A DNA stretch of 64,000 nucleotides, from assembly GCA_949152475.1 (NCBI GenBank), contig OX424563.1, positions 39,628,120 to 39,692,119 of the forward strand, read 5' to 3'. Below, one piece after another: positions 36,901-64,000 of this stretch (positions are counted from its first letter, which is position 1; each line of letters begins with the position of its first letter). Source of the DNA: Terebella lapidaria (lineage: Eukaryota > Annelida > Polychaeta > Terebellida > Terebellidae). The position numbers were made by a program, and so were the translations under genes. Under the pieces are notes generated by a model, which worked only from the letters and a program-made list of their open reading frames with translations, searched no databases and was not told where the DNA came from.

Positions 36901-39542
36901 TCCACCGTACGATGGACATGCGATGCTCCACTGTACGATGGACATGTGATGCTCCACCGTATGATTGACATGCGAGACTCCACTGTACGTTGGACATGTG
37001 ACGCTCCACCGTACGATGGACATGGGATGCTCCTTCGTACGATGGACATGTGACGCTCCACCGTACGATGGACATGGGATGCTCCACCGTAGGATGGACA
37101 TGTGACGCTCCACCGTATGATGGACATGCAATGCTCCACTGTACAATGGACATGTGAAGCTCCACCGTACGATGGACATGGGATGCTCCACCGTATGATG
37201 GACATGTGACGCTCCACCGTATGATGGACCTGTGATGCTCCACCATACGATGGACATCTGACGCTCCACCGTACGATAGACATGCGATGCCCCACCATAC
37301 GATGGACATGTGACGCTCCACTGTACGATGGACATGTGACGCTCCACCATATGATGGCCATGCAAGGCTCCACTGTACAATGGACATGTGACGCTCCACC
37401 GTACGATGGACACGCGACGCTCCACCGTATGATGGACATGCAACGCTCCATCGTACGATGGACATGTGACGCTCCACCATACGATGGACATCTGACGCTC
37501 CACCGTACGATGGACATGCGATGCTCCACTGTACGATGGACATGTGACGCTCCACCGTATGATTGACATGCGAGGCTATACTGTACAATGGACATGTGAC
37601 GCTCCACCGTACGATGGACATGGGATGCTCCTTCGTACGATGGACATGTGACGCTCCACCGTACGATGGACATGGGATGCTCCACCGTAGGATGGACATG
37701 TGACGCTCCACCATACGATGGGCATGCGATGCTCCAATGTACGATGGACATGTGATGCTCCAACGTACGATGGACATGTGACGCTCCACCGTACGACGGT
37801 CATGCAAGGCTCCACTGTACCATGGACATGTGACGCTCCACCGTACGATGGACATGCGACGCTCCACCGTATGATGGACATGCGACGCTCCACTGTACGA
37901 TGGACATGTGACGCTCCACCGTATGATTGACATGCGAGGCTCCACCGTACGATGGACATGCGATGCTCCACCGTACGATGGACATGCGATGCTCCACTGT
38001 ACGATGGACATGTGACGCTCCACCGTATGATTGACATGCGAGGCTCTACTGTACGATGGACATGTGACGCTCCACCGTACGATGGACATGGGATGCTCCT
38101 GCATACGATGGACATGTGACGCTCCACCGTACGATGGACATGGGATGCTCCACCGTAGGATGGACATGTGACGCTCCACCGTACGATGGGCATGCGATGC
38201 TCCAATGTACGATGGACATGTGATGCTCCACCGTACGATGGACATGTGACGCTCCACCGTATGATGGACATGCAAGGCTCCACTGTACAATGGACATGTG
38301 ACGCTCCACCGTACGATGGACATGGGATGCTGCACCGTATGATGAACATGTGACGCTCCACCGTATGATGGACATGTGACGCTCCACCGTACGATGGACA
38401 TGCGACGCTCCATCGTACGATGGACATGTGACAATCCACCGTACGATGGACATCTGAAGCTCCTCTGCACGATGGACAAGCGACGCTCCACTGTACGATG
38501 GACATGTGATGCTCCACCGTACGATGGACATGCGACGCTCCATCGTACGATGGACATGTGATGCTCCACCGTACGATGGACATGCGACGCTCCATCGTAC
38601 GATGGACTAGCGACACTCCACCGTAAGATGGACATGCGACGCTCCACCGTACGATGGACATGGGACGCTCCATCATACGATGGACATGTGATGCTCCACC
38701 ATACGATCGACATGCGATGCTCCACCGTATGATCGACATGTGATGCTCCACCGTACGATGGACATGTGACGCTCCACCGTACGATGGACATGGGATGCTC
38801 CACCGTATGATGGACATGTGACGCTCCACCGTATGATGGACATGTGACGCTCCACCGTACGATGGACATGCGACGCTCCATCGTACGATGGACATGTGAC
38901 AATCCACCGTACGATGGACATCTGACGCTCCTCTGCACGATGGACAAGCGACGCTCCACTGTACGATGGACATGTGATGCTCCACCATACGATGGACATG
39001 CGACGCTCCATCGTACGATGGACTAGCGACACTCCACCGTAAGATGGACTGGCGAGGCTCCACCGTATGATGGACATGCGACGCTCCATCGCAGGATGAA
39101 CATGCGACGCTCCACCGTACGAAGGACATGCGATGCTCCACCGTACGATGGACATGCGACGCTCCACCGTACGATGGACATGCGACGCTCCATCGTACGA
39201 TAGACATGTGACACTACACCGTAAGATGGACATGCGAGGCTCCACCGTACAATAGACATGCGACGCTCCACTGTATGAATGACATGCGATGTTTTACTGT
39301 ACAATGGACACGTTACGCTCAACCGTAAGATGGACATGCGATGCTCCACAGTACGATGGACATGGGACGCTCCATCATACGATGGACATGTGATGCTCCA
39401 CCATACGATCGACATGCGATGCTCCACCGTTCGATCGACATGTGATGCTCCACCGTACGATGGACATGTGACGCTCCACCATACGATGGACATGTGATGC
39501 TCCACTGTATGATGGACATGCGATGCTTTACTGTACAATGGA
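33953..39542 (+). repeat. Compound HOR unit, 5,590 bp (215 monomers)
   Basis: It is exactly 215 monomers between markers. It contains a near-perfect 1,794-bp tandem duplication (about 34572-38159), followed by segments related to block B and to the 21-31 kb unit. Its first part matches the next unit at an offset of 5,590 bp. Its last 2 kb (from about 37576) matches 46467 onward at an offset of 8,891 bp. Confidence 0.83.
34572..38159 (+). repeat. Tandem duplication of 1,794 bp (2 x 69 monomers)
   Basis: Copy 1 is about 34572-36365 and copy 2 about 36366-38159. Landmarks CCACGGTACG (34614 and 36408) and TGCACGGCTCC (34918 and 36712) set the offset. I noticed only a few differences, including GCGATGCTCC near 35490 against GCGATGCCCC near 37284 and GGCTCCACTG near 36248 against GGCTCTACTG near 38042. 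This is among the youngest large events in the window. Confidence 0.87.
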
Positions 39543-42500
39543 CACGTTTTGCTCAACCGTAAGAGTGACATGCGATGCTCCACAGTACGATGGACATGGG
39601 ACGCTCCATCATACGATGGAAATGTGACGCTCCACCGTACGATCGACATGCGATGCTCCACCGTATGATCGACATGTGATGCTCCACCGTACGATGGACA
39701 TGGGATCCTCCATCGTACGATGGACATGCGATGCTCCACTGTACGATCGACATGCGATGCTCCACCGTACGATGGACATGCGATGTTCCATTGTACGATG
39801 GACATCTGATGCTCCACCATACGATGGACATGTGACACTCCGCTGTACGATGGACATGTGACGCTCCACCGTACGATGGACATGCGACGCTCCATCGTAC
39901 GATGGACATGGGATGCTCTATCGTATGATGGACTAGCGATGCTCCACCGTAAGATGGACATGTGACGCCCCACAGTACGATGGACATGCGACGCTCCATC
40001 GTACGATGGACATGGGATGCTCCACCGTATGATGGACATGTGACGCTCTACCGTACGATGGACATGCGATGCTCCACCGTACGATGGACCTGTGATGCTC
40101 CACCATACAATGGACATCTGACGCTCCACCGTACGATAGACATGCGATGCTCCACCATACGATGGACATGTGACGCTCCACCGTACGATGGACATGCGAC
40201 GCTCCACGGTACGATGGACATGCGATGCTCCACTGTACGATGGGCATGTGACGCTCCACCGTATGATTGACATGCGACGCTATACTGTACGATGGACATG
40301 TGACGCTCCACCGTACGATGGACATGGGATGCTCCTTCGTTCGATGGACATGTGACGCTCCACCGTACGATGGACATGGGATGATCCACCGTAAGATGGA
40401 CATGTGACGCTCCACCGTACGATGGGCATGCGATGCTGAAATGTACGATGGACATGTGATGCTCCACCGTACGATGGACATGTGACGCTGCACCGTACGA
40501 TGGTCATGCACGGCTCCACTGTACAATGGACATGCGACGCTCCACCGTACGATGGACATGCGACGCTCCACCGTATGATGGACATGCGACGCTCCACTGT
40601 ACGATGGACATGTGACGCTCCACCGTATGATTGACATGCGAGGCTCCACCGTACGATGGACATGCGACGCTCCACCGTACGATGGACATGCGATGCTCCA
40701 CTGTACGATGGACATGTGATGCTCCACCGTATGATTGACATGCGAGACTCCACTGTACGTTGGACATGTGACGCTCCACCGTACGATGGACATGGGATGC
40801 TCCTTCGTACGATGGACATGTGACGCTCCACCGTACGATGGACATGGGATGCTCCACCGTAGGATGGACATGTGACGCTCCACCGTATGATGGACATGCA
40901 ATGCTCCACTGTACAATGGACATGTGAAGCTCCACCGTACGATGGACATGGGATGCTCCACCGTATGATGGACATGTGACGCTCCACCGTATGATGGACC
41001 TGTGATGCTCCACCATACGATGGACATCTGACGCTCCACCGTACGATAGACATGCGATGCTCCACCATACGATGGACATGTGACGCTCCACTGTACGATG
41101 GACATGTGACGCTCCACCATATGATGGCCATGCAAGGCTCCACTGTACAATGGACATGTGACGCTCCACCGTACGATGGACACGCGACGCTCCACCGTAC
41201 GATGGACATGCGACGCTCCACCGTACGATGGACATGCGACGCTCCACCGTACGATGGACATGTGACGCTCCACCGTACGATGGACATGCGATGCTCCACT
41301 GTACGATGGACATGTGATGCTCCAACGTACGATGGACATGTGACGCTCCACCGTACGACGGTCATGCAAGGCTCCACTGTACCATGGACATGTGACGCTC
41401 CACCGTACGATGGACATGCGACGCTCCACCGTATGATGGACATGCGACGCTCCACTGTACGATGGACATGTGACGCTCCACCGTATGATTGACATGCGAG
41501 GCTCCACCGTACGATGGACATGCGATGCTCCACCGTACGATGGACATGCGATGCTCCACTGTACGATGGACATCTGACGCTCCACCGTACGATGGACATG
41601 CGATGCTCCACTGTACGATGGACATGTGACGCTCCACCGTATGATTGACATGCGAGGCTATACTGTACAATGGACATGTGACGCTCCACCGTACGATGGA
41701 CATGGGATGCTCCTTCGTACGATGGACATGTGACGCTCCACCGTACGATGGACATGGGATGCTCCACCGTAGGATGGACATGTGACGCTCCACCATACGA
41801 TGGGCATGCGATGCTCCAATGTACGATGGACATGTGATGCTCCAACGTACGATGGACATGTGACGCTCCACCGTACGACGGTCATGCAAGGCTCCACTGT
41901 ACCATGGACATGTGACGCTCCACCGTACGATGGACATGCGACGCTCCACCGTATGATGGACATGCGACGCTCCACTGTACGATGGACATGTGACGCTCCA
42001 CCGTATGATTGACATGCGAGGCTCCACCGTACGATGGACATGCGATGCTCCACCGTACGATGGACATGCGATGCTCCACTGTACGATGGACATGTGACGC
42101 TCCACCGTATGATTGACATGCGAGGCTCCACTGTACGATGGACATGTGACGCTCCACCGTACGATGGACATGGGATGCTCCTGCATACGATGGACATGTG
42201 ACGCTCCACCGTACGATGGACATGGGATGCTCCACCGTAGGATGGACATGTGACGCTCCACCGTACGATGGGCATGCGATGCTCCAATGTACGATGGACA
42301 TGTGATGCTCCACCGTACGATGGACATGTGACGCTCCACCGTATGATGGACATGCAAGGCTCCACTGTACAATGGACATGTGACGCTCCACCGTACGATG
42401 GACATGGGATGCTCCACCGTATGATGAACATGTGACGCTCCACCGTATGATGGACATGTGACGCTCCTCCGTACGATGGACATGCGACGCTCCATCGTAC

Positions 42501-42896
42501 GATGGACATGTGACAATCCACCGTACGATGGACATCTGAAGCTCCTCTGCACGATGGACAAGCGACGCTCCACTGTACGATGGACATGTGATGCTCCACC
42601 GTACGATGGACATGCGACGCTCCATCGTACGATGGACATGTGATGCTCCACCGTACGATGGACATGCGACGCTCCATCGTACGATGGACTAGCGACACTC
42701 CACCGTACGATGGACATGGGACGCTCCATCATACGATGGACATGTGATGCTCCACCATACGATCGACATGCGATGCTCCACCGTATGATCGACATGTGAT
42801 GCTCCACCGTACGATGGACATGTGACGCTCCACCATACGATGGACATGTGACGCTCCACTGTATGATGGTCATGCGATGCTTTACTGTACAATGGA
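39543..42896 (+). repeat. HOR unit, 3,354 bp (129 monomers), mosaic
   Basis: The left part matches 33953 onward at an offset of 5,590 bp. Within it, a segment of about 275 bp around CGACGGTCATGC occurs at about 41300-41575 and again at about 41820-42095, an offset of 520 bp (20 monomers). The material between those copies is different, so this is a partial duplication or template switch rather than a simple tandem copy. Confidence 0.8.
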
Positions 42897-45183
42897 CACG
42901 TTTTGCTCAACCGTAAGAGTGACATGCGATGCTCCACAGTACGATGGACATGGGACGCTCCATCATACGATGGAAATGTGACGCTCCACCGTACGATCGA
43001 CATGCGATGCTCCACCGTATGATCGACATGTGATGCTCCACCGTACGATGGACATGGGATCCTCCATCGTACGATGGACATGCGATGCTCCACCGTACGA
43101 TCGACATGCGATGCTCCACCGTACGATGGACATGCGATGTTCCATTGTACGATGGACATCTGATGCTCAACCATACGATGGACATGTGACACTCCGCTGT
43201 ACGATGGAAATGTGACGCTCCACTGTACGATGGACATGCGATGCTCCATCGTACGATGGACATGGGATGCTCTATCGTATGATGGACTAGCGATGCTCCA
43301 CCATAAGATGGACATGTGACGCCCCACCGTACGATGGACATGCGACGCTCCATCGTACGATGGACATGGGATGCTCCACCGTATGATGGACATGTGACGC
43401 TCTACCGTACGATGGACATGCGATGCTCCACCGTACGATGGACCTGTGATACTCCACCATACAATGGACATCTGACGCTCCACCGTATGATAGACATGCG
43501 ATGCTCCACCATACGATGGACATGTGATGCTCCACTGTACGATGGACATGTGACGCTCCACCCTATGATGGACATGCAAGGCTCCACTGTACAATGGACA
43601 TGTGACGCTCCACCGTACGATGGACATGCGATGCTCCACTGTACGATGGAAATGTGACGCTCCACCGAACGATGGACATGCAATGCTCCATCGTACGATG
43701 GGCTAGCGACGTTCCACCGTAAGATGGACATGCGACGCTCCATGTACGATGGACATGTGACGCTCCACCGTACGATGGACATGCGACGCTCCACTGTATG
43801 ATGGACATGCGATGCTTTACTGTACAATGGACATGTGATGCTCCACCGTATGATGGACATGTAACGCTCCATCGTACGATGGACTAGCGAAGCTCCACCG
43901 TAAGGTGGACATGCGACGCTCCACAGTACGTTGGACATGGGACGCTCCATCGTACGATGGACATGTGACACTCCACCGTACGATCGACATGCAATGCTTC
44001 ACAGTACCATGGACATGTGATGCTCCACCGTACGATGGACATCTAATGCTCCACCATACGATGGACATGCGATGCTCCACCGTACGATGGACATGTGATG
44101 CTCCACCGTACGATGGACATGCGACGCTCCACCGTACGATGGACATGCGATGCTCCACTGTACGATGGACATGTGACGCTCCACCGTATGATTGACATGC
44201 GAGGCTCCACTGTACGATGGACATGTGACGCTCCACCGTACGATGGACATGGGATGCTCCACCGTAGGATGGACATGTGACGCTCCACCGTACGATGGGC
44301 ATGCGATGCTCCAATGTACGATGGACATGTGATGCTCCACCGTACGATGGACATGGGACGCTCCACCGTATGATGGACATGCAAGGCTCCACTGTACAAT
44401 GGACATGTGACTCTCCACCGTACGATGGACATGGGATGCTCCACCGTATGATGGACATGTGACGCTCCACCGTATGATGGACATGTGACGCTCCACCGTA
44501 CGATGGACATGCGACGCTCCATCGTACGATGGACATGTGACAATCCACCGTACGATGGACATCTGACGCTCCTCTGCACGATGGACAAGCGACGCTCCAC
44601 TGTACGATGGACATGTGATGCTCCACCGTACGATGGACATGCGACGCTCCATCGTACGATGGACTAGCGACACTCCACCGTAAGATGGACATGCGAGGCT
44701 CCACCGTACGATGGACATGCGACGCTCCATCGCAGGATGAACATGCGACGCTCCACCGTACGAAGCACATGCGATGCTCCACCGTACGATGGACATGCGA
44801 CGCTCCACCGTACGATGGACATGCGACGCTCCATCGTACGATAGACATGTGACACTACACCGTAAGATGGACATGCGAGGCTCCACCGTACAATAGACAT
44901 GCGACGCTCCACTGTATGATGGACATGCGATGCTTTACTGTACAATGGACACGTTACGCTCAACCGTAAGATGGACATGCGATGCTCCACAGTACGATGG
45001 ACATGGGACGCTCCATCATACGATGGACATGTGATGCTCCACCATACGATCGACATGCGATGCTCCACCGTTCGATCGACATGTGATGCTCCACCGTACG
45101 ATGGACATGTGACGCTCCACCATACGATGGACATGTGACGCTCCACTGTATGATGGACATGCGATGCTTTACTGTACAATGGA
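42897..45183 (+). repeat. HOR unit, 2,287 bp (88 monomers), contains block B3
   Basis: Its length is 88 monomers less one base, explained by the 25-bp monomer at 43732-43756. Block B3 (about 43497-44920) matches B1 at an offset of 42,612 bp and B2 at 11,231 bp. Private differences include CCACCCTATGATGG near 43557 and CATGTAACGC near 43858. Confidence 0.85.
43732..43756 (+). repeat. 25-bp variant monomer (block B3)
   Basis: It is the third and last 25-bp monomer found, with the same core deletion as at 1120-1144. It marks the third B block and accounts for the last 1-bp shift in the marker spacing. Confidence 0.9.
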
Positions 45184-48100
45184 CACGTTTTGCTCAACCG
45201 TAAGAGTGAAATGCGATGCTCCACAGTACGATGGACATGGGACGCTCCATCATACGATGGAAATGTGACGCTCCACCGTACGATCGACATGCGATGCTCC
45301 ACCGTATGATCGACATGTGATGCTCCACCGTACGATGGACATGGGATCCTCCATCGTACGATGGACATGCGATGCTCCACCGTACGATCGACATGCGATG
45401 CTCCACCGTACGATGGACATGCGATGTTCCATTGTACGATGGACATCTGATGCTCCACCATACGATGGACATGTGACACTCCGCTGTACGATGGACATGT
45501 GACGCTCCACCGTACGATGGACATGCGACGCTCCATCGTACGATGGACATGGGATGCTCTATCGTATGATGGACTAGCGATGCTCCACCGTAAGATGGAC
45601 ATGTGACGCCCCACCGTACGATGGACATGCGACGCTCCATCGTACGATGGACATGGGATGCTCCACCGTATGATGGACATGTGACGCTCTACCGTACGAT
45701 GGACATGCGATGCTCCACCGTACGATGGACCTGTGATGCTCCACCATACAATGGACATCTGACGCTCCACCGTACGATAGACATGCGATGCTCCACCATA
45801 CGATGGACATGTGACGCTCCACCGTACGATGGACATGCGACGCTCCACCGTACGATGGACATGCGATGCTCCACTGTACGATGGACATGTGACGCTCCAC
45901 CGTATGATGGACATGCAAGGCTCCACTGTACAATGGACATGTGACGCTCCACTATACGATGGACATGCGATGCTCCACCGTATGATGGACATGCAACGCT
46001 CCATCGTACGGTGGACATGTGACGCTCCACCGTACGATGGACATGCGATGCTCCACTGTACGATGGACATGTGACGCTCCACCGTACGATGGACATGGGA
46101 TGCTCCTTCGTTCGATGGACATGTGACGCTCCACCGTACGATGGACATGGGATGCTCCACCGTAAGATGGACATGTGACGCTCCACCGTACGATGGGCAT
46201 GCGATGCTGAAATGTACGATGGACATGTGATGCTCCACCGTACGATGGACATGTGACGCTCCACCGTACGATGGTCATGCACGGCTCCACTGTACAATGG
46301 ACATGCGACGCTTCACCGTACGATGGACATGCGACGCTCCACCGTATGATGGACATGCGACGCTCCACTGTACGATGGACATGTGACGCTCCACCGTATG
46401 ATTGACATGCGAGGCTATACTGTACAATGGACATGTGACGCTCCACCGTATGATTGACATGCGAGGCTATACTGTACAATGGACATGTGACGCTCCACCG
46501 TACGATGGACATGGGATGCTCCTTCGTACGATGGACATGTGACGCTCTACCGTACGATGGACATGGGATGCTCCACCGTAGGATGGACATGTGACGCTCC
46601 ACCATACGATGGGCATGCGATGCTCCAATGTACGATGGACATGTGATGCTCCAACGTACGATGGACATGTGACGCTCCACCGTACGACGGTCATGCAAGG
46701 CTCCACTGTACCATGGACATGTGACGCTCCACCGTACGATGGACATGCGACGCTCCACCGTATGATGGACATGCGACGCTCCACTGTACGATGGACATGT
46801 GACGCTCCACCGTATGATTGACATGCGAGGCTCCACCGTACGATGGACATGCGATGCTCCACCGTACGATGGACATGCGATGCTCCACTGTACGATGGAC
46901 ATGTGACGCTCCACCGTATGATTGACATGCGAGGCTCCACTGTACGATGGACATGTGACGCTCCACCGTACGATGGACATGGGATGCTCCTGCATACGAT
47001 GGACATGTGACGCTCCACCGTACGATGGACATGGGATGCTCCACCGTAGGATGGACATGTGACGCTCCACCGTACGATGGGCATGCGATGCTCCAATGTA
47101 CGATGGACATGTGATGCTCCACCGTACGATGGACATGTGACGCTCCACCGTATGATGGACATGCAAGGCTCCACTGTACAATGGACATGTGACGCTCCAC
47201 CGTACGATGGACATGGGATGCTGCACCGTATGATGAACATGTGACGCTCCACCGTATGATGGACATGTGACGCTCCACCGTACGATGGACATGCGACGCT
47301 CCATCGTACGATGGACATGTGACAATCCACCGTACGATGGACATCTGAAGCTCCTCTGCACGATGGACAAGCGACGCTCCACTGTACGATGGACATGTGA
47401 TGCTCCACCGTACGATGGACATGCGACGCTCCATCGTACGATGGACATGTGATGCTCCACCGTACGATGGACATGCGACGCTCCATCGTACGATGGACTA
47501 GCGACACTCCACCGTAAGATGGACATGCGACGCTCCACCGTACGATGGACATGGGACGCTCCATCATACGATGGACATGTGATGCTCCACCATACGATCG
47601 ACATGCGATGCTCCACCGTATGATCGACATGTGATGCTCCACCGTACGATGGACATGTGACGCTCCACCGTACGATGGACATGGGATGCTCCACCGTATG
47701 ATGGACATGTGACGCTCCACCGTATGATGGACATGTGACGCTCCACCGTACGATGGACATGCGACGCTCCATCGTACGATGGACATGTGACAATCCACCG
47801 TACGATGGACATCTGACGCTCCTCTGCACGATGGACAAGCGACGCTCCACTGTACGATGGACATGTGATGCTCCACCATACGATGGACATGCGACGCTCC
47901 ATCGTACGATGGACTAGCGACACTCCACCGTAAGATGGACTGGCGAGGCTCCACCGTATGATGGACATGCGACGCTCCATCGCAGGATGAACATGCGACG
48001 CTCCACCGTACGAAGGACATGCGATGCTCCACCGTACGATGGACATGCGACGCTCCACCGTACGATGGACATGCGACGCTCCATCGTACGATAGACATGT

Positions 48101-48433
48101 GACACTACACCGTAAGATGGACATGCGAGGCTCCACCGTACAATAGACATGCGACGCTCCACTGTATGAATGACATGCGATGTTTTACTGTACAATGGAC
48201 ACGTTACGCTCAACCGTAAGATGGACATGCGATGCTCCACAGTACGATGGACATGGGACGCTCCATCATACGATGGACATGTGATGCTCCACCATACGAT
48301 CGACATGCGATGCTCCACCGTTCGATCGACATGTGATGCTCCACCGTACGATGGACATGTGACGCTCCACCATACGATGGACATGTGATGCTCCACTGTA
48401 TGATGGACATGCGATGCTTTACTGTACAATGGA
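45184..48433 (+). repeat. HOR unit, 3,250 bp (125 monomers), hybrid
   Basis: The left part, to about 46.3 kb, resembles the start of the 97-mer and then the 23.6-kb type; it shares CATCGTACGGTGG, here near 46002. From about 46467 it matches 37576 onward at an offset of 8,891 bp. It includes a perfect 52-bp dimer duplication at 46383-46486. Just after this unit the sequence switches to the type seen at 6.5-13 kb. Confidence 0.82.
46383..46486 (+). repeat. Perfect tandem duplication of a monomer pair (2 x 52 bp)
   Basis: Bases 46383-46434 and 46435-46486 are identical. Each holds a TATGATTGAC monomer followed by a GAGGCTATACTG monomer. Elsewhere this pair appears once per block. It is the smallest clear duplication in the window and shows that short, two-monomer steps also occur. 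Confidence 0.88.
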
Positions 48434-50955
48434 CACGTTTTGCTCAACCGTAAGAGTGACATGCGATGCTCCACAGTACGATGGACATGGGACGCTCCAT
48501 CATACGATGGAAATGTGACGCTCCACCGTACGATCGACATGCGATGCTCCACCGTATGATCGACATGTGATGCTCCACCGTACGATGGACATGGGATCCT
48601 CCATCGTACGATGGACATGCGATGCTCCACCGTACGATCGACATGCGATGCTCCACCGTACGATGGACATGCGATGTTCCATTGTACGATGGACATCTGA
48701 TGCTCCACCATACGATGGACATGTGACACTCCGCTGTACGATGGACATGTGACGCTCCACCGTACGATGGACATGCGACGCTCCATCGTACGATGGACAT
48801 GGGATGCTCTATCGTATGATGGACTAGCGATGCTCCACCGTAAGATGGACATGTGACGCCCCACAGTACGATGGACATGCGACGCTCCATCGTACGATGG
48901 ACATGGGATGCTCCACCGTATGATGGACATGTGACGCTCTACCGTACGATGGACATGCGATGCTCCACCGTACGATGGACCTGTGATGCTCCACCATACA
49001 ATGGACATCTGACGCTCCACCGTACGATAGACATGCGATGCTCCACCATACGATGGACATGTGACGCTCCACCGTACGATGGACATGCGACGCTCCACCG
49101 TACGATGGACATGCGATGCTCCACTGTACGATGGACATGTGACGCTCCACCGTATGATGGACATGCAAGGCTCCACTGTACAATGGACATGTGACGCTCC
49201 ACTATACGATGGACATGCGATGCTCCACCGTATGATGGACATGCAACGCTCCATCGTACGATGGACATGTGACGCTCCACCGTACGATGGACATGCGATG
49301 CTCCACTGTACGATGGACATGTGACGCTCCACCGTATGATTGACATGCGACGCTATACTGTACGATGGACATGTGACGCTCCACCGTACGATGGACATGG
49401 GATGCTCCTTCGTTCGATGGACATGTGACGCTCCACCGTACGATGGACATGGGATGCTCCACCGTAAGATGGACATGTGACGCTCCACCGTACGATGGGC
49501 ATGCGATGCTGAAATGTACGATGGACATGTGATGCTCCACCGTACGATGGACATGTGACGCTGCACCGTACGATGGTCATGCAAGGCTCCACTGTACAAT
49601 GGACATGCGACGCTCCACCGTACGATGGACATGCGACGCTCCACCGTATGATGGACATGCGACGCTCCACTGTACGATGGACATGTGACGCTCCACCGTA
49701 TGATTGACATGCGAGGCTCCACCGTACGATGGACATGCGACGCTCCACCGTACGATGGACATGCGATGCTCCACTGTACGATGGACATGTGATGCTCCAC
49801 CGTATGATTGACATGCGAGACTCCACTGTACGTTGGACATGTGACGCTCCACCGTACGATGGACATGGGATGCTCCTTCGTACGATGGACATGTGACGCT
49901 CCACCGTACGATGGACATGGGATGCTCCACCGTAGGATGGACATGTGACGCTCCACCGTATGATGGACATGCAATGCTCCACTGTACAATGGACATGTGA
50001 AGCTCCACCGTACGATGGACATGGGATGCTCCACCGTATGATGGACATGTGACGCTCCACCGTATGATGGACCTGTGATGCTCCACCATACGATGGACAT
50101 CTGACGCTCCACCGTACGATAGACATGCGATGCTCCACCATACGATGGACATGTGACGCTCCACCGTACGATGGACACGCGACGCTCCACCGTATGATGG
50201 ACATGCAACGCTCCACCGTACGATGGACATGCGATGCTCCACTGTACGATGGACATGTGACGCTCCACCGTATGATTGACATGCGAGGCTCCACTGTACG
50301 ATGGACATGTGACAATCCACCGTACGATGGACATCTGACGCTCCTCTGCACGATGGACAAGCGACGCTCCACTGTACGATGGACATGTGATGCTCCACCG
50401 TACGATGGACATGCGACGCTCCATCGTACGATGGACTAGCGACACTCCACCGTAAGATGGACTGGCGAGGCTCCACCGTACGATGGACATGCGACGCTCC
50501 ATCGCAGGATGAACATGCGACGCTCCACCGTACGAAGGACATGCGATGCTCCACCGTACGATGGACATGCGACGCTCCACCGTACGATGGACATGCGACG
50601 CTCCATCGTACGATAGACATGTGACACTACACCGTAAGATGGACATGCGAGGCTCCACCGTACAATAGACATGCGACGCTCCACTGTATGAATGACATGC
50701 GATGTTTTACTGTACAATGGACACGTTACGCTCAACCGTAAGATGGACATGCGATGCTCCACAGTACGATGGACATGGGACGCTCCATCATACGATGGAC
50801 ATGTGATGCTCCACCATACGATCGACATGCGATGCTCCACCGTTCGATCGACATGTGATGCTCCACCGTACGATGGACATGTGACGCTCCACCATACGAT
50901 GGACATGTGATGCTCCACTGTATGATGGACATGCGATGCTTTACTGTACAATGGA
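48434..50955 (+). repeat. HOR unit, 2,522 bp (97 monomers), copy 4
   Basis: It matches 6550-9071 at an offset of 41,884 bp (1,611 monomers less the two bases lost in B2 and B3). I noticed no internal difference. It begins the second superblock, which runs to the window edge. Confidence 0.9.
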
Positions 50956-53900
50956 CACGTTTTGCTCAACCGTAAGAGTGACATGCGATGCTCCACAGTA
51001 CGATGGACATGGGACGCTCCATCATACGATGGAAATGTGACGCTCCACCGTACGATCGACATGCGATGCTCCACCGTATGATCGACATGTGATGCTCCAC
51101 CGTACGATGGACATGGGATCCTCCATCGTACGATGGACATGCGATGCTCCACCGTACGATCGACATGCGATGCTCCACCGTACGATGGACATGCGATGTT
51201 CCATTGTACGATGGACATCTGATGCTCCACCATACGATGGACATGTGACACTCCGCTGTACGATGGACATGTGACGCTCCACCGTACGATGGACATGCGA
51301 CGCTCCATCGTACGATGGACATGGGATGCTCTATCGTATGATGGACTAGCGATGCTCCACCGTAAGATGGACATGTGACGCCCCACAGTACGATGGACAT
51401 GCGACGCTCCATCGTACGATGGACATGGGATGCTCCACCGTATGATGGACATGTGACGCTCTACCGTACGATGGACATGCGATGCTCCACCGTACGATGG
51501 ACCTGTGATGCTCCACCATACAATGGACATCTGACGCTCCACCGTACGATAGACATGCGATGCTCCACCATACGATGGACATGTGACGCTCCACCGTACG
51601 ATGGACATGCGACGCTCCACCGTACGATGGACATGCGATGCTCCACTGTACGATGGACATGTGACGCTCCACCGTATGATGGACATGCAAGGCTCCACTG
51701 TACAATGGACATGTGACGCTCCACTATACGATGGACATGCGATGCTCCACCGTATGATGGACATGCAACGCTCCATCGTACGATGGACATGTGACGCTCC
51801 ACCGTACGATGGACATGCGATGCTCCACTGTACGATGGACATGTGACGCTCCACCGTATGATTGACATGCGACGCTATACTGTACGATGGACATGTGACG
51901 CTCCACCGTACGATGGACATGGGATGCTCCTTCGTTCGATGGACATGTGACGCTCCACCGTACGATGGACATGGGATGCTCCACCGTAAGATGGACATGT
52001 GACGCTCCACCGTACGATGGGCATGCGATGCTGAAATGTACGATGGACATGTGATGCTCCACCGTACGATGGACATGTGACGCTGCACCGTACGATGGTC
52101 ATGCAAGGCTCCACTGTACAATGGACATGCGACGCTCCACCGTACGATGGACATGCGACGCTCCACCGTATGATGGACATGCGACGCTCCACTGTACGAT
52201 GGACATGTGACGCTCCACCGTATGATTGACATGCGAGGCTCCACCGTACGATGGACATGCGACGCTCCACCGTACGATGGACATGCGATGCTCCACTGTA
52301 CGATGGACATGTGATGATCCACCGTATGATTGACATGCGAGACTCCACTGTACGTTGGACATGTGACGCTCCACCGTACGATGGACATGGGATGCTCCTT
52401 CGTACGATGGACATGTGACGCTCCACCGTACGATGGACATGGGATGCTCCACCGTAGGATGGACATGTGACGCTCCACCGTATGATGGACATGCAATGCT
52501 CCACTGTACAATGGACATGTGAAGCTCCACCATACGATGGACATGGGATGCTCCACCGTATGATGGACATGTGACGCTCCACCGTATGATGGACCTGTGA
52601 TGCTCCACCATACGATGGACATCTGACGCTCCACCGTACGATAGACATGCGATGCTCCACCATACGATGGACATATGACGCTCCACCGTACGATGGACAC
52701 GCGACGCTCCACCGTATGATGGACATGCAACGCTCCATCGTACGATGGACATGTGACGCTCCACCATACGATGGACATCTGACGCTCCACCGTACAATGG
52801 ACATGCGATGCTCCACTGTACGATGGACATGTGACGCTCCACCGTATGATTGACATGCGAGGCTATACTGTACAATGGACATGTGACGCTCCACCGTACG
52901 ATGGACATGGGATGCTCCTTCGTACGATGGACATGTGACGCTCCACCGTACGATGGACATGGGATGCTCCACCGTAGGATGGACATGTGACGCTCCACCA
53001 TACGATGGGCATGCGATGCTCCAATGTACGATGGACATGTGATGCTCCAACGTACGATGGACCTGTGACGCTCCACCGTACGACGGTCATGCAAGGCTCC
53101 ACTGTACCATGGACATGTGACGCTCCACCGTACGATGGACATGCGACGCTCCACCGTACGATGGACATGCGACGCTCCACTGTACGATGGACATGTGACG
53201 CTCCACCGTATGATTGACATGCGAGGCTCCACCGTACGATGGACATGCGACGCTCCACCGTACGATGGACATGCGATGCTCCACTGTACGATGGACATGT
53301 GACGCTCCACCGTATGATTGACATGCGAGGCTCCACTGTACGATGGACATGTGACGCTCCACCGTACGATGGACATGGGATGCTCCACTGTACGATGGAC
53401 ATGTGATGCTCCACCGTATGATTGACATGCGAGACTCCACTGTACGTTGGACATGTGACGCTCCACCGTACGATGGACATGGGATGCTCCTTCGTACGAT
53501 GGACATGTGACGCTCCACCGTACGATGGACATGGGATGCTCCACCGTAGGATGGACATGTGACGCTCCACCGTATGATGGACATGCAATGCTCCACTGTA
53601 CAATGGACATGTGAAGCTCCACCGTACGATGGACATGGGATGCTCCACCGTAGGATGGACATGTGACGCTCCACCGTATGATGGACCTGTGATGCTCCAC
53701 CATACGATGGACATCTGACGCTCCACCGTACGATAGACATGCGATGCTCCACCATACGATGAACATGTGACGCTCCACCGTACGATGGACACGCGACGCT
53801 CCACCGTATGATGGACATGCAACGCTCCATCGTACGATGGACATGTGACGCTCCACCATACGATGGACATCTGACGCTCCACCGTACGATGGACATGCGA

Positions 53901-55089
53901 TGCTCCACTGTACGATGGACATGTGACGCTCCACCGTATGATTGACATGCGAGGCTATACTGTACAATGGACATGTGACGCTCCACCGTACGATGGACAT
54001 GGGATGCTCCTTCGTACGATGGACATGTGACGCTCCACCGTACGATGGACATGGGATGCTCCACCGTAGGATGGACATGTGACGCTCCACCATACGATGG
54101 GCATGCGATGCTCCAATGTACGATGGACATGTGATGCTCCAACGTACGATGGACATGTGACGCTCCACCGTACGACGGTCATGCAAGGCTCCACTGTACC
54201 ATGGACATGTGACGCTCCACCGTACGATGGACATGCGACGCTCCACCGTACGATGGACATGCGACGCTCCACTGTACGATGGACATGTGACGCTCCACCG
54301 TATGATTGACATGCGAGGCTCCACCGTACGATGGACATGCGACGCTCCACCGTACGATGGACATGCGATGCTCCACTGTACGATGGACATGTGACGCTCC
54401 ACCGTATGATTGACATGCGAGGCTCCACTGTACGATGGACATGTGACAATCCAGCGTACGATGGACATCTGACGCTCCTCTGCACGATGGACAAGCGACG
54501 CTCCACTGTACGATGGACATGTGATGCTCCACCGTACGATGGACATGCGACGCTCCATCGTACGATGGACTAGCGACACTCCACCGTAAGATGGACTGGC
54601 GAGGCTCCACCGTACGATGGACATGCGACGCTCCATCGCAGGATGAACATGCGACGCTCCACCGTACGAAGGACATGCGATGCTCCACCGTACGATGGAC
54701 ATGCGACGCTCCACCGTACGATGGACATGCGACGCTCCATCGTACGATAGACATGTGACACTACACCGTAAGATGGACATGCGAGGCTCCACCGTACAAT
54801 AGACATGCGACGCTCCACTGTATGAATGACATGCGATGTTTTACTGTACAATGGACACGTTACGCTCAACCGTAAGATGGACATGCGATGCTCCACAGTA
54901 CGATGGACATGGGACGCTCCATCATACGATGGACATGTGATGCTCCACCATACGATCGACATGCGATGCTCCACCGTTCGATCGACATGTGATGCTCCAC
55001 CGTACGATGGACATGTGACGCTCCACCATACGATGGACATGTGATGCTCCACTGTATGATGGACATGCGATGCTTTACTGTACAATGGA
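50956..55089 (+). repeat. HOR unit, 4,134 bp (159 monomers), copy 2
   Basis: It matches 9072-13205 at an offset of 41,884 bp, including the 1,092-bp internal duplication (here about 52287-54445). Differences seen are A at 52675, C at 53063 and G at 54454, plus two sites (53520 and 54222) where this copy keeps G and the partner has A. Five differences in about 4.1 kb is a minimum count. Confidence 0.88.
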
Positions 55090-57611
55090 CACGTTTTGCT
55101 CAACCGTAAGAGTGACATGCGATGCTCCACAGTACGATGGACATGGGACGCTCCATCATACGATGGAAATGTGACGCTCCACCGTACGATCGACATGCGA
55201 TGCTCCACCGTATGATCGACATGTGATGCTCCACCGTACGATGGACATGGGATCCTCCATCGTACGATGGACATGCGATGCTCCACCGTACGATCGACAT
55301 GCGATGCTCCACCGTACGATGGACATGCGATGTTCCATTGTACGATGGACATCTGATGCTCCACCATACGATGGACATGTGACACTCCGCTGTACGATGG
55401 ACATGTGACGCTCCACCGTACGATGGACATGCGACGCTCCATCGTACGATGGACATGGGATGCTCTATCGTATGATGGACTAGCGATGCTCCACCGTAAG
55501 ATGGACATGTGACGCCCCACAGTACGATGGACATGCGACGCTCCATCGTACGATGGACATGGGATGCTCCACCGTATGATGGACATGTGACGCTCTACCG
55601 TACGATGGACATGCGATGCTCCACCGTACGATGGACCTGTGATGCTCCACCATACAATGGACATCTGACGCTCCACCGTACGATAGACATGCGATGCTCC
55701 ACCATACGATGGACATGTGACGCTCCACCGTACGATGGACATGCGACGCTCCACCGTACGATGGACATGCGATGCTCCACTGTACGATGGACATGTGACG
55801 CTCCACCGTATGATGGACATGCAAGGCTCCACTGTACAATGGACATGTGACGCTCCACTATACGATGGACATGCGATGCTCCACCGTATGATGGACATGC
55901 AACGCTCCATCGTACGATGGACATGTGACGCTCCACCGTACGATGGACATGCGATGCTCCACTGTACGATGGACATGTGACGCTCCACCGTATGATTGAC
56001 ATGCGACGCTATACTGTACGATGGACATGTGACGCTCCACCGTACGATGGACATGGGATGCTCCTTCGTTCGATGGACATGTGACGCTCCACCGTACGAT
56101 GGACATGGGATGCTCCACCGTAAGATGGACATGTGACGCTCCACCGTACGATGGGCATGCGATGCTGAAATGTACGATGGACATGTGATGCTCCACCGTA
56201 CGATGGACATGTGACGCTGCACCGTACGATGGTCATGCAAGGCTCCACTGTACAATGGACATGCGACGCTCCACCGTACGATGGACATGCGACGCTCCAC
56301 CGTATGATGGACATGCGACGCTCCACTGTACGATGGACATGTGACGCTCCACCGTATGATTGACATGCGAGGCTCCACCGTACGATGGACATGCGACGCT
56401 CCACCGTACGATGGACATGCGATGCTCCACTGTACGATGGACATGTGATGCTCCACCGTATGATTGACATGCGAGACTCCACTGTACGTTGGACATGTGA
56501 CGCTCCACCGTACGATGGACATGGGATGCTCCTTCGTACGATGGACATGTGACGCTCCACCGTACGATGGACATGGGATGCTCCACCGTAGGATGGACAT
56601 GTGACGCTCCACCGTATGATGGACATGCAATGCTCCACTGTACAATGGACATGTGAAGCTCCACCGTACGATGGACATGGGATGCTCCACCGTATGATGG
56701 ACATGTGACGCTCCACCGTATGATGGACCTGTGATGCTCCACCATACGATGGACATCTGACGCTCCACCGTACGATAGACATGCGATGCTCCACCATACG
56801 ATGGACATGTGACGCTCCACCGTACGATGGACACGCGACGCTCCACCGTATGATGGACATGCAACGCTCCACCGTACGATGGACATGCGATGCTCCACTG
56901 TACGATGGACATGTGACGCTCCACCGTATGATTGACATGCGAGGCTCCACTGTACGATGGACATGTGACAATCCACCGTACGATGGACATCTGACGCTCC
57001 TCTGCACGATGGACAAGCGACGCTCCACTGTACGATGGACATGTGATGCTCCACCGTACGATGGACATGCGACGCTCCATCGTACGATGGACTAGCGACA
57101 CTCCACCGTAAGATGGACTGGCGAGGCTCCACCGTACGATGGACATGCGACGCTCCATCGCAGGATGAACATGCGACGCTCCACCGTACGAAGGACATGC
57201 GATGCTCCACCGTACGATGGACATGCGACGCTCCACCGTACGATGGACATGCGACGCTCCATCGTACGATAGACATGTGACACTACACCGTAAGATGGAC
57301 ATGCGAGGCTCCACCGTACAATAGACATGCGACGCTCCACTGTATGAATGACATGCGATGTTTTACTGTACAATGGACACGTTACGCTCAACCGTAAGAT
57401 GGACATGCGATGCTCCACAGTACGATGGACATGGGACGCTCCATCATACGATGGACATGTGATGCTCCACCATACGATCGACATGCGATGCTCCACCGTT
57501 CGATCGACATGTGATGCTCCACCGTACGATGGACATGTGACGCTCCACCATACGATGGACATGTGATGCTCCACTGTATGATGGACATGCGATGCTTTAC
57601 TGTACAATGGA
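55090..57611 (+). repeat. HOR unit, 2,522 bp (97 monomers), copy 5
   Basis: It corresponds to 18484-21005 at an offset of 36,606 bp. Relative to the left superblock, the 106-mer and 97-mer that would precede it (5,278 bp) are absent. It lacks the private changes of 18484-21005 near 19841 and 20603, so those arose after the two superblocks separated or were lost here. Confidence 0.9.
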
Positions 57612-60600
57612 CACGTTTTGCTCAACCGTAAGAGTGACATGCGATGCTCCACAGTACGATGGACATGGGACGCTCCATCATACGATGGAAATGTGACGCT
57701 CCACCGTACGATCGACATGCGATGCTCCACCGTATGATCGACATGTGATGCTCCACCGTACGATGGACATGGGATCCTCCATCGTACGATGGACATGCGA
57801 TGCTCCACCGTACGATCGACATGCGATGCTCCACCGTACGATGGACATGCGATGTTCCATTGTACGATGGACATCTGATGCTCCACCATACGATGGACAT
57901 GTGACACTCCGCTGTACGATGGACATGTGACGCTCCACCGTACGATGGACATGCGACGCTCCATCGTACGATGGACATGGGATGCTCTATCGTATGATGG
58001 ACTAGCGATGCTCCACCGTAAGATGGACATGTGACGCCCCACAGTACGATGGACATGCGACGCTCCATCGTACGATGGACATGGGATGCTCCACCGTATG
58101 ATGGACATGTGACGCTCTACCGTACGATGGACATGCGATGCTCCACCGTACGATGGACCTGTGATGCTCCACCATACAATGGACATCTGACGCTCCACCG
58201 TACGATAGACATGCGATGCTCCACCATACGATGGACATGTGACGCTCCACCGTACGATGGACATGCGACGCTCCACCGTACGATGGACATGCGATGCTCC
58301 ACTGTACGATGGACATGTGACGCTCCACCGTATGATGGACATGCAAGGCTCCACTGTACAATGGACATGTGACGCTCCACTATACGATGGACATGCGATG
58401 CTCCACCGTATGATGGACATGCAACGCTCCATCGTACGATGGACATGTGACGCTCCACCGTACGATGGACATGCGATGCTCCACTGTACGATGGACATGT
58501 GACGCTCCACCGTATGATTGACATGCGACGCTATACTGTACGATGGACATGTGACGCTCCACCGTACGATGGACATGGGATGCTCCTTCGTTCGATGGAC
58601 ATGTGACGCTCCACCGTACGATGGACATGGGATGCTCCACCGTAAGATGGACATGTGACGCTCCACCGTACGATGGGCATGCGATGCTGAAATGTACGAT
58701 GGACATGTGATGCTCCACCGTACGATGGACATGTGACGCTGCACCGTACGATGGTCATGCAAGGCTCCACTGTACAATGGACATGCGACGCTCCACCGTA
58801 CGATGGACATGCGACGCTCCACCGTATGATGGACATGCGACGCTCCACTGTACGATGGACATGTGACGCTCCACCGTATGATTGACATGCGAGGCTCCAC
58901 CGTACGATGGACATGCGACGCTCCACCGTACGATGGACATGCGATGCTCCACTGTACGATGGACATGTGATGATCCACCGTATGATTGACATGCGAGACT
59001 CCACTGTACGTTGGACATGTGACGCTCCACCGTACGATGGACATGGGATGCTCCTTCGTACGATGGACATGTGACGCTCCACCGTACGATGGACATGGGA
59101 TGCTCCACCGTAGGATGGACATGTGACGCTCCACCGTATGATGGACATGCAATGCTCCACTGTACAATGGACATGTGAAGCTCCACCATACGATGGACAT
59201 GGGATGCTCCACCGTATGATGGACATGTGACGCTCCACCGTATGATGGACCTGTGATGCTCCACCATACGATGGACATCTGACGCTCCACCGTACGATAG
59301 ACATGCGATGCTCCACCATACGATGGACATGTGACGCTCCACCGTACGATGGACACGCGACGCTCCACCGTATGATGGACATGCAACGCTCCATCGTACG
59401 ATGGACATGTGACGCTCCACCATACGATGGACATCTGACGCTCCACCGTACAATGGACATGCGATGCTCCACTGTACGATGGACATGTGACGCTCCACCG
59501 TATGATTGACATGCGAGGCTATACTGTACAATGGACATGTGACGCTCCACCGTACGATGGACATGGGATGCTCCTTCGTACGATGGACATGTGACGCTCC
59601 ACCGTACGATGGACATGGGATGCTCCACCGTAGGATGGACATGTGACGCTCCACCATACGATGGGCATGCGATGCTCCAATGTACGATGGACATGTGATG
59701 CTCCAACGTACGATGGACATGTGACGCTCCACCGTACGACGGTCATGCAAGGCTCCACTGTACCATGGACATGTGACGCTCCACCGTACGATGGACATGC
59801 GACGCTCCACCGTACGATGGACATGCGACGCTCCACTGTACGATGGACATGTGACGCTCCACCGTATGATTGACATGCGAGGCTCCACCGTACGATGGAC
59901 ATGCGACGCTCCACCGTACGATGGACATGCGATGCTCCACTGTACGATGGACATGTGACGCTCCACCGTATGATTGACATGCGAGGCTCCACTGTACGAT
60001 GGACATGTGACGCTCCACCGTACGATGGACATGGGATGCTCCTGCATACGATGGACATGTGACGCTCCACCGTACGATGGACATGGGATGCTCCACCGTA
60101 GGATGGACATGCGATGCTCCACTGTACGATGGACATGTGACGCTCCACCGTATGATGGACATGCAAGGCTCCACTGTACAATGGACATGTGACGCTCCAC
60201 TATACGATGGACATGCGATGTTCCACCGTATGATGGACATGCAACGCTCCATCGTACGGTGGACATGTGACGCTCCACCGTACGATGGACATGCGATGCT
60301 CCACTGTACGATGGACATGTGACGCTCCACCGTACGATGGACATGGGATGCTCCTTCGTTCGATGGACATGTGACGCTCCACCGTACGATGGACATGGGA
60401 TGCTCCACCGTAAGATGGACATGTGACGCTCCACCGTACGATGGGCATGCGATGCTGAAATGTACGATGGACATGTGATGCTCCACCGTACGATGGACAT
60501 GTGACGCTCCACCGTACGATGGTCATGCAAGGCTCCACTGTACAATGGACATGCGACGCTTCACCGTACGATGGACATGCGACGCTCCACCGTATGATGG

Positions 60601-63600
60601 ACATGCGACGCTCCACTGTACGATGGACATGTGACGCTCCACCGTATGATTGACATGCGAGGCTCCACCGTACGATGGACATGCGACGCTCCACCGTACG
60701 ATGGACATGCGATGCTCCACTGTACGATGGACATGTGATGCTCCACCGTATGATTGACATGCGAGACTCCACTGTACGTTGGACATGTGACGCTCCACCG
60801 TACGATGGACATGGGATGCTCCTTCGTACGATGGACATGTGACGCTCCACCGTACGATGGACATGGGATGCTCCACCGTAGGATGGACATGTGACGCTCC
60901 ACCGTATGATGGACATGCAATGCTCCACTGTACAATGGACATGTGAAGCTCCACCGTACGATGGACATGGGATGCTCCACCGTATGATGGACATGTGACG
61001 CTCCACCGTATGATGGACATGTGACGCTCCACCGTACGATGGACATGCGACGCTCCATCGTACGATGGACATGCGACGCTCCATCGTACGATGGACATGC
61101 GACAATCCACCGTACGATGGACATCTGACGCTCCTCTGTACGATGGACAAGCGACGCTCCATCGCAGGATGGACATGCGACGCTCCACCGTACGAAGGAC
61201 ATGTGAGGCTCCACCGTACGATGGACATGCGACGCTCCACCGTACGATGGACATGCGACGCTCCATCGTACGATGGACATGCGACGCTCCACCGTACGAT
61301 GGACATGCGATGCTCCACTGTACGATGGACATGTGACGCTCCACCGTATGATGGACATGCAAGGCTCCACTGTACAATGGACATGTGACGCTCCACTATA
61401 CGATGGACATGCGATGCTCCACCGTATGATGGACATGCAACGCTCCATCGTACGATGGACATGTGACGCTCCACCGTACGATGGACATGCGATGCTCCAC
61501 TGTACGATGGACATGTGACGCTCCACCGTATGATTGACATGCGAGGCTCCACTGTACGATGGACATGTGACGCTCCACCGTACGATGGACATGGGATGCT
61601 CCTGCATACGATGGACATGTGACGCTCCACCGTACGATGGACATGGGATGCTCCACCGTAGGATGGACATGTGACGCTCCATCGTATGATGGGCATGCGA
61701 TGCTCCAATGTACGATGGACATGTGATGCTCCACCGTACGATGGACATGTGACGCTCCACCGTATGATGGACATGCAAGGCTCCACTGTACAATGGACAT
61801 GTGACGCTCCACCGTACGATGGACATGGGATGCTCCACCGTATGATGAACATGTGACGCTCCACCGTATGATGGACATGTGACGCTCCACCGTACGATGG
61901 ACATGCGACGCTCCATCGTACGATGGACATGTGACAATCCACCGTACGATGGACATCTGACGCTCCTCTGCACGATGGACAAGCGACGCTCCACTGTACG
62001 ATGGACATGTGATGCTCCACCGTACGATGGACATGCGACGCTCCATCGTACGATGGACATGTGATGCTCCACCGTACGATGGACATGGGATGCTCCACCG
62101 TAAGATGGACATGTGACGCTCCACCGTACGATGGGCATGCGATGCTGAAATGTACGATGGACATGTGATGCTCCACCGTACGATGGACATGTGACGCTGC
62201 ACCGTACGATGGTCATGCAAGGCTCCACTGTACAATGGACATGCGACGCTCCACCGTACGATGGACATGCGACGCTCCACCGTATGATGGACATGCGACG
62301 CTCCACTGTACGATGGACATGTGACGCTCCACCGTATGATTGACATGCGAGGCTCCACCGTACGATGGACATGCGACGCTCCACCGTACGATGGACATGC
62401 GATGCTCCACTGTACGATGGACATGTGATGATCCACCGTATGATTGACATGCGAGACTCCACTGTACGTTGGACATGTGACGCTCCACCGTACGATGGAC
62501 ATGGGATGCTCCTTCGTACGATGGACATGTGACGCTCCACCGTACGATGGACATGGGATGCTCCACCGTAGGATGGACATGTGACGCTCCACCGTATGAT
62601 GGACATGCAATGCTCCACTGTACAATGGACATGTGAAGCTCCACCATACGATGGACATGGGATGCTCCACCGTATGATGGACATGTGACGCTCCACCGTA
62701 TGATGGACCTGTGATGCTCCACCATACGATGGACATCTGACGCTCCACCGTACGATAGACATGCGATGCTCCACCATACGATGGACATGTGACGCTCCAC
62801 CGTACGATGGACACGCGACGCTCCACCGTATGATGGACATGCAACGCTCCATCGTACGATGGACATGTGACGCTCCACCATACGATGGACATCTGACGCT
62901 CCACCGTACAATGGACATGCGATGCTCCACTGTACGATGGACATGTGACGCTCCACCGTATGATTGACATGCGAGGCTATACTGTACAATGGACATGTGA
63001 CGCTCCACCGTACGATGGACATGGGATGCTCCTTCGTACGATGGACATGTGACGCTCCACCGTACGATGGACATGGGATGCTCCACCGTAGGATGGACAT
63101 GTGACGCTCCACCATACGATGGGCATGCGATGCTCCAATGTACGATGGACATGTGATGCTCCAACGTACGATGGACATGTGACGCTCCACCGTACGACGG
63201 TCATGCAAGGCTCCACTGTACCATGGACATGTGACGCTCCACCGTACGATGGACATGCGACGCTCCACCGTACGATGGACATGCGACGCTCCACTGTACG
63301 ATGGACATGTGACGCTCCACCGTATGATTGACATGCGAGGCTCCACCGTACGATGGACATGCGACGCTCCACCGTACGATGGACATGCGATGCTCCACTG
63401 TACGATGGACATGTGACGCTCCACCGTATGATTGACATGCGAGGCTCCACTGTACGATGGACATGTGACGCTCCACCGTACGATGGACATGGGATGCTCC
63501 TGCATACGATGGACATGTGACGCTCCACCGTACGATGGACATGGGATGCTCCACCGTAGGATGGACATGCGATGCTCCACTGTACGATGGACATGTGACG

Positions 63601-64000
63601 CTCCACCGTATGATGGACATGCAAGGCTCCACTGTACAATGGACATGTGACGCTCCACTATACGATGGACATGCGATGTTCCACCGTATGATGGACATGC
63701 AACGCTCCATCGTACGGTGGACATGTGACGCTCCACCGTACGATGGACATGCGATGCTCCACTGTACGATGGACATGTGACGCTCCACCGTACGATGGAC
63801 ATGGGATGCTCCTTCGTTCGATGGACATGTGACGCTCCACCGTACGATGGACATGGGATGCTCCACCGTAAGATGGACATGTGACGCTCCACCGTACGAT
63901 GGGCATGCGATGCTGAAATGTACGATGGACATGTGATGCTCCACCGTACGATGGACATGTGACGCTCCACCGTACGATGGTCATGCAAGGCTCCACTGTA
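57612..64000 (+). repeat. Compound HOR unit, partial at the right edge
   Basis: Bases 57612 to about 61069 match 21006-24463 (offset 36,606). After one added monomer near 61055-61090, the rest matches about 26777-29682 (offset 34,318). One copy of the 2,314-bp segment is therefore missing here. The first part of the 22.0-kb type recurs at 62054 onward. The unit continues beyond the window. Confidence 0.85.

What the first reader, a model, noticed from the sequence alone, without database searches (positions are those of the whole stretch)
48434..64000. 15.6-kb superblock duplicated from 6550-29682, with exact whole-monomer indels
Relative to the left copy, the right copy lacks 5,278 bp (203 monomers: the units at 13206-18483) and 2,314 bp (89 monomers: one copy of a tandem pair), and gains one 26-bp monomer. 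The arithmetic closes exactly: 23,132 - 5,278 - 2,314 + 26 = 15,566. Five single-base differences were noticed over the first 6.66 kb, all inside the 159-mer unit. This records a recent long-range copy followed by in-register losses or gains, preserved well enough to reconstruct.
Basis: seen in the sequence. Interest (0 to 1): 0.75.

Follow-up and report, generated by a model that had tools for sequence, protein, structure and literature searches.

The report
Nested duplications in worm satellite DNA

Summary
Confirmed, with corrections. The window is one 26-bp satellite array. The match is larger than claimed: it starts at 5890/47774 and runs past the window to 38854/73172 (19 mismatches in 25,399 bp). 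It is not a lone copy: a third lies at window-scale 84130-113809 and a partial fourth at 123194-126911. The source is chromosome 9 of the polychaete Terebella lapidaria, in a field of about 3.2 Mb near one chromosome end. The long repeats are local: about 18.5 kb of the chromosome 3 array shares no exact stretch over 88 bp. Best reading: ordinary higher-order-repeat satellite turnover by in-register tandem duplication and deletion, with three size levels (26 bp; 1.8-6.2 kb; 25-33 kb). Loss or gain is not settled. Two side results deserve a test: differences concentrate in CpG columns, and length-changing mutations are rare.

The parts
1..64000 (+). 26-bp satellite, consensus GACATGCGACGCTCCACCGTACGATG, about 2,461 monomers
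   Evidence: wraparound alignment; period-26 identity 0.79-0.86 in every 1-kb bin
5890..38854 (+). superblock copy 1 (left copy), aligned to 47774-73172 with 19 mismatches in 25,399 bp
47774..64000 (+). superblock copy 2 (right copy); continues beyond the window to window-scale 73172
13206..18483 (+). 5,278 bp (203 monomers) present in copy 1 and absent in copy 2; the break can be placed at equal cost at 1,403 positions (54341-55743 in copy 2)
61058..61077 (+). junction of the 2,288-bp (88-monomer) difference, 19-20 bp of exact homology; copy 3 shows the same junction
23101..27746 (+). tandem pair of an 89-monomer (2,314-bp) unit in copy 1, 0 mismatches over 2,332 bp
5802..10853 (+). two tandem 97-monomer (2,522-bp) higher-order units; diagonal match 2,530 bp with 3 mismatches
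15214..22787 (+). three further tandem 97-monomer units (starting 15214, 17736, 20258)
50208..52737 (+). 97-monomer unit in copy 2
54342..59393 (+). two tandem 97-monomer units in copy 2; diagonal match 2,530 bp with 3 mismatches
34571..38189 (+). tandem pair of a 69-monomer (1,794-bp) unit, 2 mismatches over 1,825 bp
32609..38854 (+). 239-monomer (6,214-bp) unit, one copy here; just beyond the window it forms a tandem run of about three (from 66927, 73141 and 79355)
38855..47773 (+). tail between copies 1 and 2; it recurs in copy 3 (26741-42707 vs 91426-107392, 13 mismatches; 42698-49098 vs 107409-113809, 2 mismatches)
1130..1130 (+). one-base deletion at consensus column 16; same lineage at 32511 and 43742

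Best explanation
This is higher-order-repeat satellite DNA. A 26-bp monomer array on chromosome 9 of Terebella lapidaria has been rebuilt by repeated tandem duplication and deletion of blocks aligned in the 26-bp register. New units (69, 89, 97, 145, 239 monomers) were born by joining monomers that are about 85% alike, with 8-32 bp of exact identity at the joint. Copy number then changed by exchange between near-identical units (the 5,278-bp step, over a zone of 1.4 kb). Blocks of 25-33 kb were themselves copied, so that at least three long copies now stand close together. Shown: register of the steps, sizes, identities, local restriction, near-equal distance of three copies. Inferred: unequal sister-chromatid exchange or break-induced replication as the enzymatic route; no coding role; no selection for this arrangement.
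For: Three collinear copies: copy 1-2, 19 mismatches in 25,399 bp; copy 2-3, 11 in 19,410; copy 1-3, 22 in 29,075. Private differences 5/3/5 over 12,114 bp and 4/0/3 over 6,717 bp, near a star. The steps between copies 1 and 2 (5,278; 2,288) and the tandem steps (6,214; 3,770; 2,522; 2,314; 1,794) are multiples of 26. Local restriction: a 60-mer of the 97-monomer unit occurs 13 times genome-wide, all at C9:39.630-39.789 Mb; in 8 of 8 overlapping loci from C3 (about 18.5 kb) the longest exact match is 82-88 bp, and in five 9.5-10 kb pieces of C9 outside the stretch it is 1,462 bp (nearest piece), 214, 139, 138 and 75 bp. Six joints have 8, 18, 31, 32, 21 and 19 bp of exact homology against null medians of 8-9 (combined one-sided P 0.019). 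A neutral duplication/deletion simulation comes close to the observed repeat cover.
Against: Observed cover by repeats of at least 1 kb (0.92) and 2.5 kb (0.81) lies above all 12 simulated runs, and I chose the simulation's block sizes. Jumps between distant sources are often not multiples of 26, because one-base and 12-bp phase changes lie between them. Individually only one of six joints passes P 0.05 (0.040; the others 0.057 to 0.579), and I picked the joints by hand. The enzymatic route is not distinguished. Reads were not examined, so an assembly error is not excluded.
Confidence: 0.87

Rival explanations
1. Assembly artefact: one copy, or the copy number, is an error of the HiFi assembly (retained second haplotype, or a wrong path through near-identical repeats).
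For: HiFi yield is 22.32 Gb from 2.37 million reads, so about 9.4 kb per read, 34-fold; copies 1 and 2 differ at only about 1 site per 1.3 kb.
Against: The longest exact repeat in 174 kb is 5,628 bp, below the mean read length; the three copies have private differences and different whole-unit steps; the fetched stretch holds no N.
Confidence: 0.08
2. Copied blocks were inserted by rolling-circle amplification of extrachromosomal circles rather than made by unequal exchange or break-induced replication.
For: Some units stand in short tandem runs of almost identical copies (about 3 x 6,214 bp and 3 x 3,770 bp).
Against: The copies that I verified stand next to each other on C9. The C71 hit of the superblock 60-mer proved to be array without the superblock. 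Two minus-strand hits at C9:40.00 and 40.06 Mb were not verified, so inserted copies there are not excluded.
Confidence: 0.1
3. The array is kept in this form by selection, for example as a centromere of chromosomes 3 and 9.
For: Megabase-scale field near one end of C9 and an array near one end of C3; length-changing mutations are rare.
Against: No chromatin data. A 60-mer common to both arrays was found on C3 and C9 only (35 of 35 places), which speaks against a centromere repeat of all 16 chromosomes, though diverged relatives elsewhere were not sought. A neutral simulation comes close.
Confidence: 0.15

Closest known systems
Higher-order-repeat satellite DNA (type case: primate alpha satellite)
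   Same: diverged monomers (84.8% alike) inside near-identical multi-monomer units, local homogenisation, whole-unit copy-number differences
   Different: monomer of 26 bp instead of 171 bp; units of 69-239 monomers; a further level of 25-33 kb superblocks; centromere function not tested
Short-monomer complex satellites such as the bovine 1.7-series (recalled, from no call)
   Same: short diverged monomers in kilobase-scale units
   Different: not compared here by sequence; the hierarchy here reaches 25-33 kb
Smith's unequal-crossover model of repeated DNA (passages seen in PMC8122249)
   Same: predicts that unselected DNA becomes periodic by out-of-register sister exchange
   Different: a general model; it does not specify the joint homology of 8-32 bp seen here

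Membership tests
Higher-order-repeat satellite DNA | long head-to-tail array of one monomer | tested here: met
   64 kb and 174 kb read as one 26-bp array; the array is in 15 of 19 spot samples of C9 and in 7 of 7 between 38.3 and 38.9 Mb
Higher-order-repeat satellite DNA | multi-monomer units far more alike than their monomers | tested here: met
   random monomer pairs 84.8% alike; 97-monomer units differ at 3-5 sites in 2,530 bp
Higher-order-repeat satellite DNA | array-specific units (local homogenisation) | tested here: met
Centromeric satellite | CENP-A chromatin on the array | not testable with these tools
   no chromatin data
Segmental duplication of non-tandem sequence | copied block holds non-tandem sequence | tested here: not met
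   the whole block within the window is 26-bp array
Protein-coding repeat gene | one long reading frame through the monomers | tested here: inconclusive
   40 frames of 416-1,538 aa with bacterial starts, all on the minus strand, many overlapping, none near the length of the array; the consensus has no stop on that strand (read by eye), which is enough to give them; no RNA data were examined

The most novel reading that the evidence does not exclude
The array is a germline-methylated, length-guarded satellite: its variation comes mainly from CpG decay, and something (selection on 26-bp spacing, or a recombination filter) removes monomers of the wrong length, so that almost only whole-monomer changes survive while blocks of up to 33 kb turn over.
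Probability: 0.2. Interest if true: 0.5.

Novelty: new member of a known kind. Interest (0 to 1): 0.3.

Why it matters
It is a fully sequenced, three-level example of satellite turnover in an annelid. The superblocks are young enough (about 0.06-0.08% different) that duplications, whole-unit steps and single-base changes can be told apart, so joint homology, CpG decay and register can be measured rather than modelled. It also shows how a two-copy reading from one window misses further copies just outside. I found no paper on this array: Terebella with satellite DNA gave 0 papers, and polychaete with satellite DNA and chromosome-level genome gave 0, in an open library that lacks most subscription journals.

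Tried and rejected
Coding reading: the long minus-strand frames are judged a by-product of a stop-free consensus; no RNA was examined. Superblock copy on C71: a 60-mer hit, but the 8 kb around it shows no diagonal of 800 bp or more and paints only in short, diverged pieces; that 60-mer is therefore not fully specific, and its two minus-strand hits at C9:40.00 and 40.06 Mb were not verified. Long exact homology at the joints was expected and not found: painted switches have median exact homology of 25.5 bp and 11 bp in two stretches, against 8 bp for random in-register pairs; I kept only the modest result. A pattern of three joined monomer variants found nothing. The first genome search by DNA gave no scored result. 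ARAGORN found no tRNA in the mitochondrial pieces. A broader paper search held 310 papers; I saw the 15 listed, none of them on annelids by title.

Full report
WHERE IT IS. The window is G000:C9:39628120-39692119 of a genome of 761.6 Mb in 438 contigs. The mitochondrial contig C438 (15,973 bp) carries, in order, nad4L, nad4, rRNA, nad1, nad3, nad2, cox1, and then cox3, nad6, cob, atp6, nad5 (frames, named by eye; rRNA); the cox1 reads well with the invertebrate mitochondrial code. This is the usual annelid order (recalled). C1 has 100,833,644 bp, C7 43,950,887 bp and C9 41,542,525 bp. These equal the longest scaffold, the scaffold N50 and chromosome 9 (41.54 Mb) in the genome note of Terebella lapidaria, wtTerLapi1.1 (PMC11364976; part 1 of 3 of the text read).

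THE ARRAY. The whole window is one 26-bp satellite, about 2,461 monomers. Spot samples show it from 38.3 Mb into the last 10 kb of C9, interrupted by a 158-bp A+T-rich satellite (seen at 39.544-39.550 and between 39.852 and 39.900 Mb) and by changes of strand. A second array lies on C3, with hits at 2.7-4.3 Mb. A 60-mer common to both was found 35 times in the genome, 19 on C3 and 16 on C9. The unplaced contig C71 also carries the array. The list of exact consensus monomers (1,973 forward, 1,013 reverse) showed only its first 100 places, all on C3.

THE CLAIM CHECKED. The five mismatches in 6550-13205 are there, and the total for 48434-64000 is 9 in 15,567 bp. The copying alignment chooses three segments with the same two steps at switch costs 4 and 8; at cost 2 it prefers a four-segment path with 5 mismatches. 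The second difference is one step of 2,288 bp with 19-20 bp of exact homology. In 5 shuffles of the monomers no run over 78 bp repeated.

WHAT THE WINDOW HID. I fetched the neighbouring stretches and read 174 kb without a gap, window-scale -19999 to 154000. The match goes on to 38854/73172: 25,399 bp aligned, 19 mismatches. A third copy runs 84130-113809: 19,410 bp collinear with copy 2 (11 mismatches) and 29,075 bp aligned with copy 1 (22 mismatches). A partial fourth copy lies at 123194-126911, with 5, 4 and 7 mismatches in 3,718 bp against copies 1, 2 and 3. Unit numbers differ: the 239-monomer unit (6,214 bp) forms a tandem run of about three at the end of copy 2 and occurs once in copies 1 and 3. 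Over 12,114 three-way aligned sites the private differences are 5, 3 and 5; over 6,717 further sites 4, 0 and 3. This is what three copies that separated at nearly the same time would show.

LOCAL GROWTH. A 60-mer of the 97-monomer unit occurs 13 times genome-wide, all at C9:39.630-39.789 Mb. A superblock 60-mer occurs 7 times: four in the fetched stretch (copies 1 to 3 and the partial fourth), two on the other strand at C9:40.00 and 40.06 Mb (not verified), and one on C71 that is not a superblock. In the 8 overlapping loci from C3 (about 18.5 kb) the longest exact match with the 174 kb is 82-88 bp. In five 9.5-10 kb pieces of C9 outside the stretch it is 1,462 bp for the nearest (39.56-39.57 Mb), and 214, 139, 138 and 75 bp for the others; three further 10-kb pieces, mostly 158-bp satellite, were not compared. 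Short samples near the stretch match fully or nearly so (401 of 401 bp at 39.600 Mb, 373 of 401 at 39.800 Mb); the 14 short C9 samples further away share 46-121 bp of 301-401.

HOW IT WORKS. Units are born where two blocks of monomers, about 85% alike, are joined in register. Six such joints have 8, 18, 31, 32, 21 and 19 bp of exact homology; random joints of the same period in diverged background have medians of 8 or 9 bp, and the combined one-sided test gives P 0.019, with single P values from 0.040 to 0.579. I picked these six by hand from the diagonals, so this is a modest result. Later changes use the long near-identical units. In one search, where any earlier source was allowed, many jumps are not multiples of 26; phase changes by one base or 12 bases lie between those sources. 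A simulation of neutral in-register duplication and deletion, with block sizes chosen by me, gave for 60 to 300 events (9 runs) a cover of 0.71-0.91, 0.51-0.78, 0.29-0.77 and 0-0.45 by repeats of at least 1, 2.5, 5 and 10 kb, and a longest repeat of 8-29 kb. Observed are 0.92, 0.81, 0.68 and 0.40, and 19.4 kb. The first two values lie just above all 12 runs, so the fit is close but not complete.

SIDE RESULTS. In 174 kb, 6,678 of 6,692 monomers have 26 bp. The 14 others trace to three lineages by their context: a 1-bp deletion (10 copies), a 1-bp insertion (2 copies), and one junction lacking 12 bp, which breaks two monomers. There are 218 distinct 26-bp monomers. In the window alone the column table holds 60 base states beyond the consensus, against one length-changing lineage. 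With a ratio of one indel to about eight substitutions (recalled) some seven would be expected; homogenisation makes this count rough. Of 17,305 differences from the consensus, 12,195 fall in the 8 CpG columns of 26, and 9,918 of these are C-to-T or G-to-A. Columns 6 and 9 are nearly evenly split, so the direction of change is not proven there. Of 49 differences between superblock pairs (not independent), 25 are CpG-type transitions. In annelids a mosaic methylation pattern is ancestral, and transposon methylation occurs in some lineages only (passages of PMC11292947); methylation of this satellite is a guess that can be tested.

AGAINST KNOWN SYSTEMS. Higher-order repeats were found in 76 of 171 species with Sanger data, rarely with three or more monomers because of read length (passages of PMC4053949). 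Smith's model of periodicity by unequal exchange is often cited (passages of PMC8122249). This array meets the tested features of the class. The size of the upper level is notable; the kind is known.

VERDICT. It is ordinary satellite turnover with an unusually clear history, not a unique duplication.

Noticed in passing
C9:39544000-39550400 (L057, L013), 39852000-39900400 (L059, L060, L020): A 158-bp, 35% GC satellite, 98.7% identical from unit to unit in L060, interrupts the 26-bp field. One exact 41-mer of it occurs 798 times in the genome; the first 100 places listed are all on C9, so none on C1-C8 if the list runs in contig order.
   Followed up: partly
C9:39800400-39850000 and L059:1-190: The 26-bp array changes strand between 39.80 Mb (+) and 39.85 Mb (-), next to a 75-bp repeat and the 158-bp satellite; C3 also carries hits on both strands.
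   Followed up: partly
L028 (end of C9), L040 (start of C12), L059 (C9:39.85 Mb): Related 75-bp repeats (period; L028 by eye) stand at the end of C9, at the start of C12 on the opposite strand, and inside C9; repeats of 70-71 bp stand at the starts of C2, C5, C6 and C11. No end piece that could be read held more than one TTAGGG per strand.
   Followed up: no
C417:44633-46450 (L043, L044): A second, very different cox1 (TGA=W) on a 61-kb contig, its two matches about 460 bp apart; perhaps the mitochondrial genome of a ciliate or other protist living with the worm (inference, recalled likeness only).
   Followed up: no
1-64000, minus strand: 40 open frames of 416-1,538 aa, all on the minus strand; the consensus has no stop codon there (by eye). 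No RNA data examined.
   Followed up: partly
window-scale -3974 (in L064): The one joint in 174 kb that breaks the 26-bp register by more than one base: 12 bp missing.
   Followed up: no
C9:1-2000 and C10:1-2000: Both pieces begin and end in N and behave as N throughout: gaps, or withheld.
   Followed up: no
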